DNA from: Thermoleophilia bacterium
GTDB lineage: Bacteria > Actinomycetota > Thermoleophilia > Miltoncostaeales > Miltoncostaeaceae
Length of the DNA: 59,755 nucleotides
Assembly (NCBI GenBank): GCA_028285405.1
Contig: JANQPH010000003.1
Coordinates: 1-59,755 of the forward strand
Direction: 5' to 3'
In this document: in pieces, positions 50,726-58,310 of the stretch
Numbering within the stretch: the stretch's first letter is position 1
How the letters are laid out: each line of letters begins with the position of its first letter
Program-made: the position numbers and the translations under genes
The notes under the pieces: generated by a model
Told to the model about the DNA's origin: nothing
What the model saw: only the letters and a program-made list of their open reading frames with translations
The model's database searches: none

Positions 50726-51934
50726 ATGACCATGTGGACCCAGAAGCCGTGGCGGGTGCCCGCCCGATCGGAGTTCCTGATCGGCGCGTCGTTCGTCGCG
50801 CGGCTGGCGGATCTCACCGTCGCGCTGCCGGTGATCCTGCTCGTGGCGGGCCGGACCGGCTCCTACGCGTGGGCCGGTGTCGCGACCGGGGCGCTCGCCG
50901 TCGGCGCGGCGATTGCGACGCCGGTGCTGGGCCGGCTGGCGGACAGGAAGGGGCATCGTCGGGTGCTGGCGGTGGCCGCGCTCGTGAGCGCCATGTTCCT
51001 CGCGACGCTCGCGCTGGCGCCGGCCGGGCTCGGGCCAGCGGTGCTGGTGGTCCTCGCGGCCGGCGCCGGGCTCGCCTCGCCGCCGCTCGAGGCGAGCGTC
51101 CGATCGCTGATCGCCACACGTGAGCCCGCGCACCGACGCCAGCGGCTGCTCCAGATCGACGCGACCAGCGAGGATCTGATCTTCATCGCGGTGCCCCCTG
51201 TTCTCGTCGGCATCGCGGCGATCTTCTCGCCGACGGCGAGCGTTCTGTTCTGCTCGGTCGCCCTCGCGGTCGGGACGATGCTCATGCTCGCCTCTCCCGC
51301 CAGCGCCGGTCGGGGAACCATCGAGCGCGGCGGCGGATCGCCGCTGCGCGAGCCGGCGGTGGTGCTGCTGGCGACCTTCGGTCTTCTGGTCGGGGTGTTC
51401 TTCGGCGCGACGGAGCTCGCGCTGGTCGCCCGGGCGGGCGAGCTCGGCAGCGCCGCGCTGGCGGCCCTGCTGATCTCTGCCTGGGCAGGGGGGAGCTTCG
51501 TCGGCGGAGTGATCGCCGTCGTCCGGCCGTGGCGCCGCCCGCCGCGGCAGCGACTCCTGATCCTGGCGTCGCTGATGGCGCTGCTCGCGCTGCCGCTGGC
51601 GCCGGCGTCGGTTGCCGTGGCGCCGCTTGCGATCGCGCTGGCGCTCCAGGGCCTCACGGTTGCTCCGACGATCGCCTCGGGCGCCGAGCTGATGGCCGAC
51701 GTGGCGCCGGAGCGGTCCCGGACCGAGGCCTTCGCCTGGTCGACCTCGGCGATGACGCTCGGTGTGGCCGGTGGCCACGTCGGCGCGGGGATCGTCGTCG
51801 ACACGCTCGGCGCCCCGTCAGCGATCCTCGCCGGCGCGCTGTGCCTGTCGCTGGGCGCGATGGCCGCCGCGGTGGCGGTGCGAGCGGCCGGGCGGGCGAG
51901 ACCGGTCAGCGAGCCGCGGACCGCAGCGGCCTAG
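50726..51934 (+). CDS. MFS transporter
   Basis: 402 residues with about twelve hydrophobic helices and the MFS loop LGRLADRKGHRRVLAV after helix two. It has an EF-hand-free, small-molecule exporter layout; substrate unknown. The promoter is TTGCTA-N17-TACAGT, with the ATG nine bases after the -10. The TetR gene is divergent, and the stop shares CTAG (51931-51934) with the convergent LigD-type polymerase gene. Confidence 0.87.
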   Translation: MTMWTQKPWRVPARSEFLIGASFVARLADLTVALPVILLVAGRTGSYAWAGVATGALAVGAAIATPVLGRLADRKGHRRVLAVAALVSAMFLATLALAPAGLGPAVLVVLAAGAGLASPPLEASVRSLIATREPAHRRQRLLQIDATSEDLIFIAVPPVLVGIAAIFSPTASVLFCSVALAVGTMLMLASPASAGRGTIERGGGSPLREPAVVLLATFGLLVGVFFGATELALVARAGELGSAALAALLISAWAGGSFVGGVIAVVRPWRRPPRQRLLILASLMALLALPLAPASVAVAPLAIALALQGLTVAPTIASGAELMADVAPERSRTEAFAWSTSAMTLGVAGGHVGAGIVVDTLGAPSAILAGALCLSLGAMAAAVAVRAAGRARPVSEPRTAAA

Positions 51935-52935
51935 TCCCGGTCGCGCTTGGCCCGGCTGGGCTGGACGCGACGAGGCTCCTTCTCCTGCTTTCGAAAGTGG
52001 GGCGGCCACGGGGCGTCGCCGAGCCCCTCGGCCTCGTCGCGGTCGGCGAGCGCGAGCAGGCTGTCCAGCGAGCCCGTGGTCCCGTCGATCTCGGCCGAAG
52101 GGTCGCCGACGGTCCGGACCCGCTCCGGGACGGTGTCGAGGCGCAGGTCGTCGGGCTCCACGTCGGGCACCTCGGACCACGTCAGCGGGCACGACACCCG
52201 GGCGTTGGGGACCGGTCGCACCGAATAGGCGGACGCCACGGTGCGGTCCCGGGCGTTCTGGTTGTAGTCGACGAACACGCCGTGCCGCTCCTCCTTCCAC
52301 CACTTGCTGGTGGCCAGATCGGGCACGCGCCGCTCGACCTCGCGGGCCAGCGCCAGCGCGGCACGGCGCACGTCCTGGAAGCCCCAGCGCGGCTCGATCC
52401 GCGCCAGGACGTGAATCCCGCGGGAGCCCGAGGTCTTCGGGAAGCCGGTGAGCCCGTTGCCGGTGAGGACGTCACCGACCGTGAGCGCCACCTTCCGGAC
52501 CCAGTCCCACGGGACGTCCGGCTGCGGGTCGAGATCGACGCGGAGCTCGTCCGGTCGGTCGAGGTCCGCCCGGCGGACCGGCCACGGGTTGAAGTCGATC
52601 ACGCCGAGGTTGACGGCCCAGATCAGGTGGGCCGCATCGACGACGACCAGCTCGGTCGCCGAGCGCCCGCTCGGGAAGTGAACGGTCGCCGTCTGGAGCC
52701 AATCCGGGGCGCCTTTCGGAACCCGCTTCTGGAAGAAGGGCTCGCCGGCGATGCCGTCCACGAACCGCTTCAGCGTGGTCGGGCGCTCGTCGAGATGCAG
52801 AACCGCTTGGTCGGCGATCGCGAGGTAGTACTCGCAGAGGTCGCGCTTGGTGATGCCCGCGTCGGGGAAGAAGACCTTGTCGGGGTTCGACAGGCGCACC
52901 TCGCGCCCGCCCGCGTCGACCATCTCGTACGCCAT
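51931..52935 (-). CDS. LigD-type polymerase/primase domain protein (NHEJ)
   Basis: 334 residues of the archaeo-eukaryotic primase fold: VRLSNPDKVFFPDAGITKRDL, catalytic LRVDLDPQPD (D134, D136), KTSGSRGIHVLARI and VFVDYNQNARDRTVASAYSVR. It fills and processes ends in non-homologous end joining. It is a stand-alone polymerase, with the ligase encoded separately at 49146. ATG 52935 has a GAAGAGG ribosome-binding site, and upstream lies the 179-bp repeat array, where its promoter must be. Confidence 0.9.
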   Translation of the reverse strand: MAYEMVDAGGREVRLSNPDKVFFPDAGITKRDLCEYYLAIADQAVLHLDERPTTLKRFVDGIAGEPFFQKRVPKGAPDWLQTATVHFPSGRSATELVVVDAAHLIWAVNLGVIDFNPWPVRRADLDRPDELRVDLDPQPDVPWDWVRKVALTVGDVLTGNGLTGFPKTSGSRGIHVLARIEPRWGFQDVRRAALALAREVERRVPDLATSKWWKEERHGVFVDYNQNARDRTVASAYSVRPVPNARVSCPLTWSEVPDVEPDDLRLDTVPERVRTVGDPSAEIDGTTGSLDSLLALADRDEAEGLGDAPWPPHFRKQEKEPRRVQPSRAKRDRD

Positions 52936-53204
52936 CGCCTCTTCAGGCCTCGCGGTCCGTTGGGTGTGCAGCCCCAGCTTCGGCCGGCTACCGGCACACT
53001 CCTGCGACGCCACTCGTCGGCATCGACCGTCCTTGCCGAAGATACTGCCGCCCGTCCAGGCGGCAACCCGTCTTCTTGCCCCAGCTTCGGCCGGTCACCC
53101 TGTGAGGCGAACCCGAGAACGAGCGATGCCTCGCATCGGTCGGTCGCAGGTGTTCGGCGAGAGGACGCAGCGGGGTCTGGATGACCCCGACCGTCCGGTT
53201 GGGC

Positions 53205-53383
53205 CAACCAGCCCCGGAAGAACTGAGGCGACGACCAGAGGTCGTCGGCGGCACAGGGCCGGGGCTCTGTGCCCTCCTTGCGCCAACTTCGGCCGGTCAC
53301 TTCACCCTGAGGGCACGCCCGAGGGGGAATCACCAGACGGACAGACTGCCCCAAGGGCGAAGCGCTGCGCCCTGCGCGTCGGG
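53205..53383. repeat. 179-bp repeat unit 1
   Basis: Begins CAACCAGCCCC and ends GCGCGTCGGG. Hairpin at 53229-53247 (CGACGACC-AGA-GGTCGTCG); paired arms GTGCCCTC at 53269-53276 and GAGGGCAC at 53309-53316. Confidence 0.9.
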
Positions 53384-53562
53384 CAACCAGCCCCGAAGAC
53401 ACTCAGGCGACGACCAGAGGTCGTCGACGCCAATGGGCCGAGGCTCTGTGCCCTCCTTGCGCCAACTTCGGCCGGTCACTTCACCCTGAGGGCACGCCCG
53501 AGGGGGAATCACCAAACGGACAGATTGCCCTCAGGGCGAAGCGCTGCGGCCTGCGCGTCGGG
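53384..53562. repeat. 179-bp repeat unit 2
   Basis: Differs from unit 1 mainly in the 20 or so bases after the hairpin and at scattered positions. The hairpin (53408-53426) and both long arms are unchanged. Confidence 0.9.
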
Positions 53563-53636
53563 CAACCAGCCCCGAAGACACTGAGGCGACGACCAGAGGT
53601 CGTAGCTCCAACAGCCGGGGCTCTGTGCCCTCCTTG
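53563..53636. repeat. Partial repeat unit 3, abutting the gltB stop
   Basis: The first 74 bases of the unit, ending CTCCTTG directly before the gltB stop codon. The hairpin (53587-53604) has lost one end pair (GGTCGTA). Read with gltB it lies 33 bases after the stop and could end the gltB transcript. Confidence 0.85.
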
Positions 53637-56600
53637 CTATTCGGTCGAGATGCTCGGGTCTGCCTGCTGGGTGACCGGGTTGATCGCGATGAAGTGCGCG
53701 GTCGGATCCTCGATCAGCTCGGTGACCTCGGTCGCCGCGTTGTCCTGACCGGACTCGCGCAGGGCGACCTGGTAGGCGGACAGCAGCTCGCGCACGTTGG
53801 CGATGTCCGGATCGTCGAGCTCGTCGAGGCTGATCTTGGCCGCCTTCGACAGGCGCCGGCGGACCGCTCGCTCGTCGAGCCCCATCGCCTCGTTCTGGCG
53901 AACGTAGACCACGCCGCCCGTCATGCCCGAGCAGAGCCACGGGCCGGGATCGCCGAGCACGACCGCGCGTCCGCCGGTCATGTACTCGAACGCGAAGCCC
54001 TTGCAGTTGGAACGCGCCCCGAGGGTCCCGAGCTTGTCGTCGATGGGCTCGTCGGGCGTTCCGCCGATCACCATGTCGGCGCCCGACAGGCGGATGCCGG
54101 CTCGCGCGTCCGCGTCGCCCTGGATCAGGAACAGCCCGCGCTGGGCGCCGTAGGCGAAGCTCTTGCCCACGTGGCCGCCGACCCATTCGCCCGCCGCGTT
54201 CCGCGCCTTCAGGACCTGGATGTCGCCACCCAGGGCGCACTTGCCGACCCCGTCCTGCGCGCCGCCGACGACCTTGATCCGCACCCCGTCGACCGTGAAC
54301 GCCGCCAGGCCGGAGCCCGCCGCGGCACCCTTGGTGAAGGCGAGGTCGACCATCGTCGAGCCGTCACCTGGGGCGAGCGGATCGTCCTGGGGAAGGCGCG
54401 GGTCGCCGTTGCCGGATCCGTTCCCGCCACCGACCGCGCGACCGAGGGCGCCCTCCCAGCCACCGTTCAGGCCGGTGCGGGCGCGAGCGATGAGCCCCGC
54501 GAGGTCCGTGCCGAGGTTGCGGTCCTTGGCGGAGGTCGCCTCCTCCTCGACGATCACCGATCCGCCGGCCGCCAGCTGCTCGGCCGCGTGCTCGCGGCTC
54601 CGCTCCGGCGGGGGCGGGTTGAACTCGCGGAAGTACCGCGGGCCGTCGGGCGGCGCGGTGATGAGCTGGGTGCGCGTCGGGGTGAGCAGGCCGGACAGGT
54701 CGAGCGAGTCGTGATGCGAGACCTGGACGAGCCGGTCGGCCTGGCCGACGAGGGCCTGGGAGTCGGTGTACCCCATCTCACCGACGAGCTGGCGAAGCGC
54801 CGCGCCCATCTCGGTGAAGTACCGCTGGAGCGCCTCGACCGCCGGGTCGAAGACGCGGGGGACGAACCGCTTGAGCCCCTTCTCGTCGGCCTCCTCCTGC
54901 GAGTCGATCTGGGTGGCGATCCCGACGTGGCAGGTGTCGAGCTGGCACCCGCGGCAGATGGTGCAGCCGATCGCGACCATCGACGCCGTGCCGAAGCCGA
55001 GCCGGTTGGCGCCGAGGCACATGAGCCGCACCGCGTCCTGGGCGCTGCGCAGCCCGCCGTCGGCCCAGATCTCGATCCGGTCGCGGATGCCGGCCTCGGT
55101 CAGCGCGTGGTGCGCGAGGACCGTGCCGATCTCGCAGGGCAGGCCGGTCCGGCGCAGCGCGTGCTGGCGGGCGGCGCCGGTGCCGCCGTCGAAGCCCGAC
55201 AGCGTCAGGACGTCGGCCCCGGTCTTGGCGATCCCGATCGCGATGGTGCCGATGCCCGGCACGACGGGCACCTTCACGATGACCTTGGCGTCGGGGTTCG
55301 CCGTCTTCAGCTCGTCGACGAGCTGCGCGAGGTCCTCGATCGAGTACAGGTCGTGGTTGTTCGACGGGCTGATGAGGTCGCTCCCGACCTGCGCGTTTCG
55401 GGCCCGGGCGATCGCGGCGGTGACCTTCGAGCCAGGCAGGTGCCCACCCTCGCCCGGCTTGGCGCCCTGGCCGATCTTGATCTCGACCCATTCCGACGAG
55501 TTGAGCAGGAGCGTCGAGACGCCGAAGCGGCCGCTCGCGATCTGCTGGCCGCGGTGCTTGGGGTACTTGCCGTACATGTCGGGGGGCTCGCCGCCCTCGC
55601 CGTTCATGCAGAGCATGTCGGCGCGGTACGCCGCCTCGGCGTACGAGCGGAACGCGACCTCGCCCTGGCTCCCGAAGCTCATCGAGCTGATCACGAACGG
55701 CAGCGACTGCTCGCCGACGGCCGAGCTCACCTGCTCGGGGTCGATCCGATCCTCCGGCGGCGCGAGCTGCGGCGCCGTCGCGTGCCGGATGGCCACCGGC
55801 TGCTGCTGCTCGAGCTTCTCGATCGTCTCGGCGAACTCCTCGTACCCGCGCTCGGCGCTCGCGACCCGTGAGAGCGCCTTCCACACCTTCGGATACATCC
55901 GCGGGAGCTTCACCTTCGACGGGCTCTCCTCGCCGGCGCGGATCTGGCGCCCCTGCTCGGCGAGGACGTCGATCTGGTCGAAGCCGAGGCCGCGCCCATT
56001 GCTCGCGACGAAGCCGGGGATCCCCAGGATGTCGAGGATCTCGGGCGCGACGCCGATGGCCGACACCAGGCGGCTGTAGCCGCGCAGCTCGTGGATCCCG
56101 AGGGTGGAGATGACCTTCTCCATGCCCTTCTGGAGCCCGTCGAGCAGGTTCGACACCGGATCCGCGGGGTCGGGGGCCTCGAGCGTGGCCTGCTCGATCA
56201 TCGCGTACGGCGCGAGCGCCTGCGCCCCGAATCCGAAGGCGACCATCACGTCGTGGACGTTCCGGATGCCGCCGGCCTGCAGGACGAGGCTGGCCCGCCG
56301 TCGCAGCGAGGACCCGTCCTCGCCGTAGACCTCGCGAAGGGCCTTGTCGACAGCCGCCACCGCAAGGTGCGGGTCGAGCACGCGCTCTTCCGGTCCCGCG
56401 CTCTGATCCTCCAGCACGAGGAGCTCGGCGCCCTCGCGGACGGCGTCGACCGCCGCCTCCGACAGTCGTGCGACGTGGCTCCGCGCCGACTGCTCGCGGT
56501 GGTACGCGAGCGGCAGCCGGCGGGCCTTCTCGCCCCATGCGGTGAGCACGTCCTCCATGCAGGCGACGCCCTGCCAGGCGGCGACGCGCCGCATGTCCGG

Positions 56601-58310
56601 GAGCGAGAGCCGTGCGCCCGGGCGGCCACCGCCGATGATGATCGGCATGCGCAGCTCGCACCGGATCGGCGGCTCGGCCTCGACACCGGCGATCGGGGGC
56701 CGCGCGCCGAGGACGACACGCGTCGAGAAGTGCTCGACCTCGCGCTCACGGTCGATCGCGGGGTTGGTGACGACCGCGACCGTCTCCTGCAGGTAGTCGC
56801 TGATCGGCACCGGCACGGGGGAGAGGGGCCCGAGCGGACCGTCCCAGCCGAGCGAGCCGATCGGCTCGGCGCCGCGGTCGGCGTGGAACTCGACCTGCTG
56901 CTTGTCGAGCTCGATCCACCCGGACGCGGCCAGGAGCGTGTCGAGCGGCAGCGCGGGCTCGCCTTCGTCGTCGAAGTGCTCGTCGGGCTCGAAGGCCGCA
57001 GGGTCGAGGCCACCGGCCAGACGCGCGCGCGTCTCGGAGCGGGGCAGGGCGCCGCGCTGCTTGGCCCGACGGTGGACCTCCCACTGCAGGTCCGAGTAGC
57101 CGAGCACGGTCGGCTCGCCGTCGTCGCCGGTCACGATCCCGATCTTCTCGCCGGGGCTGAGCGGCTTGGGGTCGCTGAGGACGTCGCCGACCGGGACGAT
57201 GCCGGGCTCCGAGGAGACCACGTACATCGACTCCGTCTCGATCCACCAGAGTGGACGCAGGCCCATGGCGTCGACCGAGAAGACCATCTCGTCGCCGGCG
57301 CGGGCTGCGATCCCGGCGGGGCCCTGCGCGTATGGGCCGAGCGCCTCGCGGTAGTGCACGTACAGGTCCTGGAGGTCGGCCGGGAGCCGGTGGACCTCGC
57401 CGAGGATCGGCGGGAACGCGAACTCGGTCGCCTCGAGGAGCGAGAGCCCCTTCTCGTTGATGAGGCCCTCGAGCAGCCGGTTGAGGTCCTGCGAGTCGGA
57501 TCCGCCGTCGGTGACCGGGAGTCCGAGCTGCTCGGACTGCTCGCGCAGCTGGGCGATCGTGTTGATCTCGCCGTTGTGTCCGAGGATCGCGAACGGCTGG
57601 ACGCGGCTGAACGTGGGGTACGTGTTCGTCGAGTAGCGGTTGTGGGCGATGATCCGGCTCGCGCCGAACCGCTCGTCGGCGAGCTCGGGGAAGAACCCCG
57701 GGATCACCTCGGGCTGGCCCTGGACCTTGTAGACGGCGTCGTTGGCGCCGAACGAGGCCACGTGGCAGTCGAGCTCGCGTTCGACCTCGATGGTGGCGCG
57801 ATAGCACTCGCGGGCCGCGTCGGCGCCGCCGGCCGCGGCGAGCGCGGCGATCTGCCAGAACACGATCGGCTGCTCGGCCGCGCGGGGGCCGAGGACGCTC
57901 CGATCGACCTCGCCCTCGCCCCGCCAGAGCACCCGGAACCCGTGGCCCTCGAGCATCCGGTCGAGGCGCGGCACCTGGACTTCGGCCGCCTCGACGGTGT
58001 CGAAGAAGATGTGTGCGACGACGAACCGCGGGTCGTCGGCCGTCGCGGCGTCGAGCCCGCTCTCGGCGAGGCGCTCCCGCCACAGCCACCTGGGCAGATC
58101 GACCTGCAGGCCGCTGCCGTCACCCTCGCCATCCACGCTGCCCGAGCGGTGCACCATCAGCTGCAGCGCCTCGAGCGCATGCCGCACGATCTCGCGGCTC
58201 GGCTTGCCGTCCCGAGTCGCGAAGCCCGCGAGCGCGCAGGCGTCGTGCTCCTTGAGTTCCGGCAGCCCCCTCGGGGGCTGGGTGGCGAAGGGGGCGGGGG
58301 TGTTCTGCAT
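53637..58310 (-). CDS. gltB: Glutamate synthase large subunit (GltB)
   Basis: GltB makes two glutamates from glutamine and 2-oxoglutarate. The 1557-residue protein has a type-2 amidotransferase domain (mature N-terminus probably C25 in HDACALAGF; the family usually has CGVGF), a central domain, an FMN barrel (about 810-1170), the 3Fe-4S cysteines GCTICRGCQLDTCHVG near 1118 and a C-terminal GXGXG helix-domain. HNRYSTNTYPTF and GHNGEIN are intact. AGGAAGG precedes the ATG. gltD is not in the window. It ends directly at the repeat array. Confidence 0.95.
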   Translation of the reverse strand: MQNTPAPFATQPPRGLPELKEHDACALAGFATRDGKPSREIVRHALEALQLMVHRSGSVDGEGDGSGLQVDLPRWLWRERLAESGLDAATADDPRFVVAHIFFDTVEAAEVQVPRLDRMLEGHGFRVLWRGEGEVDRSVLGPRAAEQPIVFWQIAALAAAGGADAARECYRATIEVERELDCHVASFGANDAVYKVQGQPEVIPGFFPELADERFGASRIIAHNRYSTNTYPTFSRVQPFAILGHNGEINTIAQLREQSEQLGLPVTDGGSDSQDLNRLLEGLINEKGLSLLEATEFAFPPILGEVHRLPADLQDLYVHYREALGPYAQGPAGIAARAGDEMVFSVDAMGLRPLWWIETESMYVVSSEPGIVPVGDVLSDPKPLSPGEKIGIVTGDDGEPTVLGYSDLQWEVHRRAKQRGALPRSETRARLAGGLDPAAFEPDEHFDDEGEPALPLDTLLAASGWIELDKQQVEFHADRGAEPIGSLGWDGPLGPLSPVPVPISDYLQETVAVVTNPAIDREREVEHFSTRVVLGARPPIAGVEAEPPIRCELRMPIIIGGGRPGARLSLPDMRRVAAWQGVACMEDVLTAWGEKARRLPLAYHREQSARSHVARLSEAAVDAVREGAELLVLEDQSAGPEERVLDPHLAVAAVDKALREVYGEDGSSLRRRASLVLQAGGIRNVHDVMVAFGFGAQALAPYAMIEQATLEAPDPADPVSNLLDGLQKGMEKVISTLGIHELRGYSRLVSAIGVAPEILDILGIPGFVASNGRGLGFDQIDVLAEQGRQIRAGEESPSKVKLPRMYPKVWKALSRVASAERGYEEFAETIEKLEQQQPVAIRHATAPQLAPPEDRIDPEQVSSAVGEQSLPFVISSMSFGSQGEVAFRSYAEAAYRADMLCMNGEGGEPPDMYGKYPKHRGQQIASGRFGVSTLLLNSSEWVEIKIGQGAKPGEGGHLPGSKVTAAIARARNAQVGSDLISPSNNHDLYSIEDLAQLVDELKTANPDAKVIVKVPVVPGIGTIAIGIAKTGADVLTLSGFDGGTGAARQHALRRTGLPCEIGTVLAHHALTEAGIRDRIEIWADGGLRSAQDAVRLMCLGANRLGFGTASMVAIGCTICRGCQLDTCHVGIATQIDSQEEADEKGLKRFVPRVFDPAVEALQRYFTEMGAALRQLVGEMGYTDSQALVGQADRLVQVSHHDSLDLSGLLTPTRTQLITAPPDGPRYFREFNPPPPERSREHAAEQLAAGGSVIVEEEATSAKDRNLGTDLAGLIARARTGLNGGWEGALGRAVGGGNGSGNGDPRLPQDDPLAPGDGSTMVDLAFTKGAAAGSGLAAFTVDGVRIKVVGGAQDGVGKCALGGDIQVLKARNAAGEWVGGHVGKSFAYGAQRGLFLIQGDADARAGIRLSGADMVIGGTPDEPIDDKLGTLGARSNCKGFAFEYMTGGRAVVLGDPGPWLCSGMTGGVVYVRQNEAMGLDERAVRRRLSKAAKISLDELDDPDIANVRELLSAYQVALRESGQDNAATEVTELIEDPTAHFIAINPVTQQADPSISTE

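What the first reader, a model, noticed from the sequence alone, without database searches (positions are those of the whole stretch)
52974..53636. Tandem 179-bp structured repeats between gltB and the LigD-type polymerase gene
Two complete units (53205-53383, 53384-53562) and a third cut exactly at the gltB stop share a strict 179-base period and several inverted repeats. The period is not divisible by three, so this is not a repeat protein. Candidates are a tandem small-RNA gene, a multi-hairpin terminator or protein-binding array, or a miniature mobile element that duplicated in place. I know of no named family with this build.
Basis: seen in the sequence. Interest (0 to 1): 0.68.

Follow-up and report, generated by a model that had tools for sequence, protein, structure and literature searches.

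The report
Stop-codon-anchored mosaic palindromic repeat family
The tandem repeat after gltB is one array of a lineage-specific family of structured, non-coding DNA repeats, with at least 59 arrays scattered through this bacterium's genome and mostly starting right at the ends of genes, where they probably act as hairpin tails on transcripts, much as the REP/BIME repeats of E. coli do.

Summary
The 179-bp tandem repeat is real (TRF 53205-53637, 2.4 copies, 91% matches) but not a local curiosity. It is one array of a dispersed family of four palindromic modules (a1, a2, b, c): at least 59 arrays and 156 module copies in this 2.4-Mb Thermoleophilia draft genome. The period is a1+a2; read with gltB the array is a1-a2-a1-a2-a1-b-tail-c. 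Stems show compensatory changes (13 of 46 pairs; 97.5% of cells pair), and three modules fold better on the strand of the adjoining gene. Arrays start at gene 3' ends: 28 of 38 lie within 4 bp of one (8.5 expected), after native stop codons and tRNA ends; only 4 of 42 lie between divergent genes. The gltB stop is ancestral; several relatives carry unrelated hairpins there. No copy was found in 60 relatives, and a 23-base core is absent from about 85,000 other genomes. No Y1, IS110, DDE_Tnp_1 or rve transposase, reverse transcriptase or integron integrase was detected. Best reading: an orphan BIME-like mosaic repeat family, spread as non-autonomous DNA, serving as transcript 3'-end hairpins. 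Repeat family: shown. Function: inferred. It fails the REP/RAYT membership test, so: new variant of a known kind.

The parts
53563..53636 (-). module a1, copy 1; starts at the base after the gltB stop codon
   Evidence: profile match a1[1-76]; gltB stop 53637-53639
53464..53560 (-). module a2, copy 1 (long hairpin with near-invariant head CCGACGCGCAGG and tail TGACCGGCCGAAG)
   Evidence: profile match a2[1-97]
53384..53459 (-). module a1, copy 2
53285..53381 (-). module a2, copy 2
53205..53280 (-). module a1, copy 3; followed by b instead of a2; its closest copy is the a1 before b at contig C1 (95%)
53102..53200 (-). module b (palindromic, about 100 bp, inverted ends GTGAGCC[CG]AACC in intact copies)
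   Evidence: profile match b[1-99], E 1e-29; copies aligned
53081..53099 (-). tail GGTGACCGGCCGAAGCTGG, the same tail that ends a2 and c
   Evidence: read from sequence
52978..53062 (-). diverged, partial module c next to the LigD-type polymerase gene
   Evidence: profile match c[58-142], E 9e-6
53637..58310 (-). gltB (glutamate synthase large subunit), whose native TAG stop the array abuts
51931..53013 (-). LigD-type polymerase gene downstream of the array, same strand; the ORF's first start is at 53013, the true start is probably nearer 52935

Best explanation
The feature is one array of a genome-wide family of interspersed mosaic palindromic repeats, restricted as far as can be seen to this lineage. 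Four modules (a1 about 76 bp, a2 97, b 100, c 144) combine in varying order, tandem number and nesting: b lies inside a2 or between a1 and a2, and a1-a2 lies inside the apical loop of b. They spread as non-autonomous DNA, often as ready-made composites, and were kept mostly where they begin right after the end of a protein or tRNA gene, rarely between divergent promoters. There they would be transcribed as the 3' tail of the gene and fold into a strong series of hairpins. The most likely role is transcript 3'-end formation and protection: hairpins that pause or terminate RNA polymerase or halt 3' exonucleases, as described for REP/BIME in E. coli. Shown: family, modularity, nesting, gene-end anchoring, conserved pairing, absence from sampled relatives. 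Inferred: spread by transposition-like copying, and the termination or stability role.
For: About 45 dispersed places match the unit in the own genome; the inventory over fetched stretches gives 59 arrays with a1 50, a2 43, b 48, c 15 copies, 14.1 kb; a covariance model gives 46 hits. Junctions show nesting and interchange of modules between the same head and tail. Pairing: 97.5% of cells paired, 13 pairs changed on both sides against 6.4 in shuffles, covariation 0.209 against 0.119 shuffled and at most 0.047 when slid. Strand: a2 folds better in the gene-sense strand in 35/35 copies, c in 11/11, b in the opposite strand in 30/31; the a1 5' edge, c 5' edge and b 3' edge are the ones that face gene 3' ends, so for these modules the better-folding strand continues the adjacent transcript. 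Position: 28 of 38 arrays within 4 bp of a gene 3' end against 8.5 expected, maximum 19 in 200,000 simulations; 18 convergent, 20 codirectional, 4 divergent. Four arrays abut tRNA 3' ends by 2-4 bp. gltB in most aligned relatives ends at the same ...STE-TAG, so the stop is native and the array follows it; several relatives have a strong unrelated hairpin there. Upstream genes are housekeeping (GroEL, NusG, phosphoglycerate mutase, PntB, SbcC).
Against: No transcript data. No U-tract follows the hairpins on the gltB strand, so it is not a textbook intrinsic terminator. Only a small share of genes carry an array. a1 alone shows no strand preference in folding energy (17/39). Anchoring at stop codons could come from insertion specificity rather than function. 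Gene ends were called with a home-made codon model, and the inventory covers about 237 kb of stretches fetched because they hold hits. No transposase able to move the repeats was found.
Confidence: 0.6

Rival explanations
1. Purely selfish miniature mobile elements (MITE-like) with an insertion preference for hairpins or sequences at gene ends and no benefit to the host; position reflects targeting plus loss of copies that break promoters or genes.
For: Dispersed, lineage-restricted, nested in each other, composites shared between loci. b has inverted ends GTGAGCC[CG]AACC. In some loci the gene reads 34-36 bp into a1 and uses a stop inside it; for SbcC the family profile ends at residue 498 of 511 and a1 encodes about the last 12 residues, as if the element landed on the stop codon. 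Several relatives carry hairpins at the gltB stop that could have been targets.
Against: No target-site duplication or terminal inverted repeat seen for the a1-a2 unit; no Y1, IS110, DDE_Tnp_1 or rve transposase and no reverse transcriptase detected in a 97.6% complete genome. Compensatory changes and transcript-strand folding polarity suggest selection on the RNA, though hairpin-recognising transposition could also keep stems.
Confidence: 0.25
2. Recombination sites of an integron-like or site-specific system (attC-like folded sites just after stop codons).
For: Imperfect palindromes of 75-145 bp directly after stop codons in fixed orientation resemble attC in position; two adjacent XerC/XerD-type recombinase genes on contig C44 end directly in such an element.
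Against: Arrays are scattered singly behind housekeeping genes and tRNAs, not in cassette arrays. The integron integrase model gives only Xer-level matches, none over its cut-off, as in all 14 control genomes. No GTTRRRY core was recognised at consistent module ends (read by eye).
Confidence: 0.04
3. A tandem small-RNA gene specific to the gltB locus.
For: Strong, conserved structure.
Against: The same modules sit behind dozens of unrelated genes; no promoter-like site; no Rfam match.
Confidence: 0.04
4. Assembly artefact: repeat collapsed or expanded in a draft assembly.
For: Many contigs end inside modules, as repeats that defeat short-read assembly do.
Against: Artefacts do not create 59 arrays of different order with compensatory stem changes; the tandem copies in the window differ by 5-18% per module. 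The exact number of units in one array could still be wrong.
Confidence: 0.02

Closest known systems
REP / BIME (bacterial interspersed mosaic elements) of E. coli and other proteobacteria
   Same: High-copy extragenic palindromes combined into mosaics, complementary changes that keep the palindromes, location at 3' ends of transcription units; many REPs lie 1-20 nt from the stop codon (PMC12306157; PMC2817692).
   Different: Modules are 75-145 bp, not 20-40 bp; mostly direct tandem order rather than alternating orientation; nested insertion in hairpin loops; no RAYT or any Y1 transposase in the genome; no GT(A/G)G head seen; tighter spacing to the stop (mostly 0-3 bp).
BOX elements of Streptococcus pneumoniae and other stem-loop repeat families (RUP, NEMIS, Rickettsia palindromic elements)
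   Same: Modular or palindromic intergenic repeats of about 50-150 bp, tens to hundreds of copies (families listed in PMC2267715); BOX is built of three modules with a variable number of the middle one (from memory).
   Different: Unrelated sequence and lineage; here modules nest in each other and arrays are anchored at gene ends.
Uptake-sequence pairs proposed as terminators (Haemophilus, Neisseria)
   Same: A repeated sequence that forms hairpins and is proposed to serve as terminator (discussed in PMC2267715).
   Different: Those are pairs of short uptake signals of about 10 bp (from memory); here large multi-stem modules without a U-tract.
MITEs
   Same: Short, non-coding, non-autonomous, high-copy, nested.
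   Different: No terminal inverted repeat or target duplication for a1-a2, no parent transposase found.

Membership tests
REP/BIME with RAYT | Extragenic, high-copy (>100), imperfect palindromes | tested here: met
   156 module copies, nearly all between genes; conserved pairing
REP/BIME with RAYT | Composite arrays of several units | tested here: met
   Arrays of up to 7 modules
REP/BIME with RAYT | Alternating orientation of regularly spaced REPs | tested here: not met
   a1-a2 repeats are direct; only b and c are sometimes inverted
REP/BIME with RAYT | Short palindrome (20-40 bp) with GT(A/G)G head | tested here: not met
   Modules of 76-144 bp; no such head in the aligned copies
REP/BIME with RAYT | A RAYT (Y1 transposase, PF01797) in the genome | tested here: not met
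   No match at E<=10 in the genome while 10 of 14 controls ring
MITE | Terminal inverted repeats | tested here: inconclusive
   b has inverted ends GTGAGCC[CG]AACC; a1-a2 has none
MITE | Target-site duplication | tested here: inconclusive
   None clear at b-in-a2 or a1a2-in-b junctions; no close relative with an empty site
MITE | Related autonomous transposon | tested here: not met
   No match to PF01797, PF02371, PF01609 or PF00665; other families not searched
Intrinsic terminator | G+C-rich hairpin followed by a U-tract on the gene strand | tested here: not met
   No minus-strand site in 52900-53700
Integron attC | IntI integrase and cassette array | tested here: not met
   No match above the TIGR02249 cut-off; arrays dispersed
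Named RNA family (Rfam 15) | Covariance-model match at gathering score | tested here: not met
   None at the locus; only a tRNA elsewhere in the window
3'-end or stability function | Effect on termination or RNA half-life | not testable with these tools
   Needs RNA-seq or a reporter assay

The most novel reading that the evidence does not exclude
A mobile 3'-end system: structured elements delivered specifically to stop codons and tRNA 3' ends by a mechanism independent of the known hairpin transposases, so that a genome swaps its gene-end hairpins for copies of one mosaic family.
Probability: 0.12. Interest if true: 0.75.

Novelty: new variant of a known kind. Interest (0 to 1): 0.5.

Why it matters
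How palindromic repeats spread without a recognisable transposase, and whether they take over as gene-end hairpins, are open questions usually studied in E. coli and Pseudomonas. Here is an independent case in Thermoleophilia, where the literature search found no description of such repeats, with four interchangeable modules, nested insertions and a sharp position signal at native stop codons and tRNA ends. If the role is confirmed, it shows mobile DNA recruited repeatedly as transcript 3' ends. It also explains many of the breaks in this genome's assembly.

Tried and rejected
Rfam, permissive and at gathering scores: no family at the locus. Unit in relatives by blastn: only 33-35-bp matches at E 3e-4 to 1e-3 in three genomes, judged chance; the covariance model finds none in 60 relatives. 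A 23-base core pattern in 84,980 genomes and in IMG/VR: no match (the own genome may be left out there). The motif GGCAAGGAGTCG outside this genome: at most 3 per genome against 9 here, similar to the reversed-pattern control. Transposases, reverse transcriptase and integron integrase: none. Stand-alone folding of one unit gave only modest z-scores (-1.6 and -1.5), so the case for structure rests on covariation, not on energy. Considered and dropped: repeat protein (period not a multiple of three, no coding call there by the codon model), CRISPR-like array (no spacers), small-RNA gene, attC sites. Duplication in place was rejected as the main origin of the window array.

Full report
OBSERVATION. 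The tandem repeat is present as described: TRF reports 53205-53637, period 179, 2.4 copies, 91% matches, the top score in the window, and the ungapped copies are 89% identical. Read in the direction of gltB (minus strand) the array starts with a complete unit at the base after the gltB stop codon, so the incomplete copy is at the far end, where a lone a1 is followed by a different module.

A GENOME-WIDE FAMILY. Searching the own genome (G000, 2.41 Mb, 57 contigs, 97.6% complete) with 53191-53636 gave 70 matching pieces at about 45 places. The pieces do not share one set of ends; they resolve into modules: a1 (about 76 bp), a2 (97), b (100) and c (144). The 179-bp period is a1+a2. A second search with b and c and iterated profiles over 237 kb of fetched sequence gave 59 arrays with a1 50, a2 43, b 48 and c 15 copies, 14.1 kb in all. 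Many contigs end inside modules, so this is a minimum. The window array is a1-a2-a1-a2-a1-b-tail-c.

MOSAIC AND NESTING. a2 and c are alternative cores between a constant head (CCGACGCGCAGGCCGCAG) and tail (TGACCGGCCGAAG). b lies between a1 and the head (contigs C1, C11), inside a2 just before the tail (C11, C33, C36, C41), or between a1 and the tail (the window). Conversely, a1-a2 sits inside the apical loop of b at seven loci (C14, C24 twice, C30, C41, C50, C56). The window a1 next to b is 95% identical to the a1 next to b on C1 but only 82-85% to its neighbours in the array. Composites are therefore shared between loci, and the array is not a simple local duplication.

STRUCTURE. On 26 complete a1-a2 units RNAalifold gives two closed domains. 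Of all cells 97.5% form standard pairs; 13 of 46 pairs have changes on both sides (6.4 in shuffles, 0 of 500 as high); the covariation score is 0.209 against 0.119 shuffled and at most 0.047 when the partner is slid. Examples: column pair 21-73 is C-G in 16, U-A in 6 and A-U in 4 copies; 44-51 is C-G in 18 and G-C in 8. Single-unit folding energies are only mildly unusual. Folding is polar: a2 is more stable in the given strand in 35 of 35 copies, c in 11 of 11, b in the opposite strand in 30 of 31, a1 undecided.

POSITION. Genes were called with a codon model trained on the window, tRNAs with ARAGORN. The a1 5' edge faces a gene 3' end in 19 of 24 cases, 12 of them between -2 and +3 bp; the b 3' edge does so in 17 of 28, 13 of them between -9 and +4 bp. 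By contrast the a2 3' edge lies mostly 34-171 bp from the next gene. Of 38 arrays with at least one adjoining gene 3' end, 28 lie within 4 bp of it against 8.5 expected from uniform placement; the maximum in 200,000 simulations was 19. Gene pairs around arrays: 18 convergent, 20 codirectional, 4 divergent, while gaps over 20 bp in the window are 5 convergent, 18 codirectional, 12 divergent. Four arrays follow tRNA genes (Thr, Glu, two Leu) by 2-4 bp. The strand on which a2, b and c fold best is the strand of the adjoining gene.

NATIVE STOP. The gltB protein of most same-family relatives that could be aligned ends at the same ...STE with a TAG stop (TGA in two), so the array begins exactly after an ancestral stop. 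In about half of the relatives a strong hairpin of unrelated sequence lies in the first 50 nt after that stop (z from -1.8 to -6.1). GroEL, NusG and phosphoglycerate mutase also end at their family-profile ends just before an array, and SbcC carries about 12 extra residues read from a1.

DISTRIBUTION AND MOVER. The organism belongs to Thermoleophilia, near Solirubrobacterales, by its LigD-polymerase relatives. No convincing copy was found in 60 relatives by blastn or covariance model, and a 23-base core is absent from 84,980 genomes and from IMG/VR. No congeneric genome is held. Searches for Y1 transposase, IS110 transposase, DDE_Tnp_1, rve and reverse transcriptase found nothing; the integron integrase model gave only Xer-level matches.

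MECHANISM. Shown: a dispersed, mosaic, structurally conserved repeat family anchored at gene 3' ends on the transcript strand. Inferred: (1) copies spread as non-autonomous DNA, perhaps by a machinery now lost or not recognised; (2) copies persist where they serve, or at least are tolerated, as 3'-end hairpins. For E. coli, REPs near stop codons, translational effects within 15 nt of the stop, attenuation by BIMEs and Rho-dependent termination are described (PMC12306157; PMC2817692). The lack of a U-tract means that termination would need Rho or pausing; 3' protection is an equally good reading.

COMPARISON AND VERDICT. It works like REP/BIME, but the membership test fails on the short palindrome with GT(A/G)G head, on alternating orientation and on RAYT. 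It is a new variant of a known kind. Interest 0.5: the position signal and the orphan status are unusual, the concept is not.

CAVEATS. Gene calls are home-made; the number of arrays depends on a 250-bp joining rule; the stretches examined were fetched because they hold hits; no transcript data exist here.

Noticed in passing
L218:54-1984 (contig C44): Two adjacent XerC/XerD-type tyrosine recombinase genes; the second reads straight into an element variant (GGCAAGGAGTCGCTGA) that supplies its stop codon, followed by module b at the contig end.
   Followed up: partly
window 53285-53381 and 53464-53560 and all a2 copies (alignment A1, columns 85-98): The head CCGACGCGCAGG.CGCAG is almost invariant although much of it lies outside the long stem, which hints at a protein- or RNA-binding site.
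   Followed up: no
window 53626-53636 (minus strand) and other a1 starts: a1 begins with AAGGAGG, a perfect Shine-Dalgarno-like sequence directly after the stop codon, with no start codon at usable distance.
   Followed up: no
contigs C10, C11, C14, C16, C22, C23, C24, C29, C30, C39, C41, C44, C53, C56: Many contig ends fall inside or next to modules, so the repeats are a main cause of breaks in this draft assembly and copy number is underestimated.
   Followed up: partly
whole genome G000: None of four common transposase families and no reverse transcriptase was detected, unusual for a genome carrying a proliferated repeat.
   Followed up: partly
L193, L198-L202 (relatives), after the gltB stop: Unrelated strong hairpins lie directly after the gltB stop in several relatives, so a stop-adjacent hairpin looks like a recurring feature of this bacterial family.
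   Followed up: partly
L024, L025, L028, L045:8463: Genes (FolE2/MptA-like, SbcC, an unidentified one, PBP4-like) read 34-36 bp into a1 and use a stop inside it, so the element has extended proteins by about 11-12 residues.
   Followed up: partly
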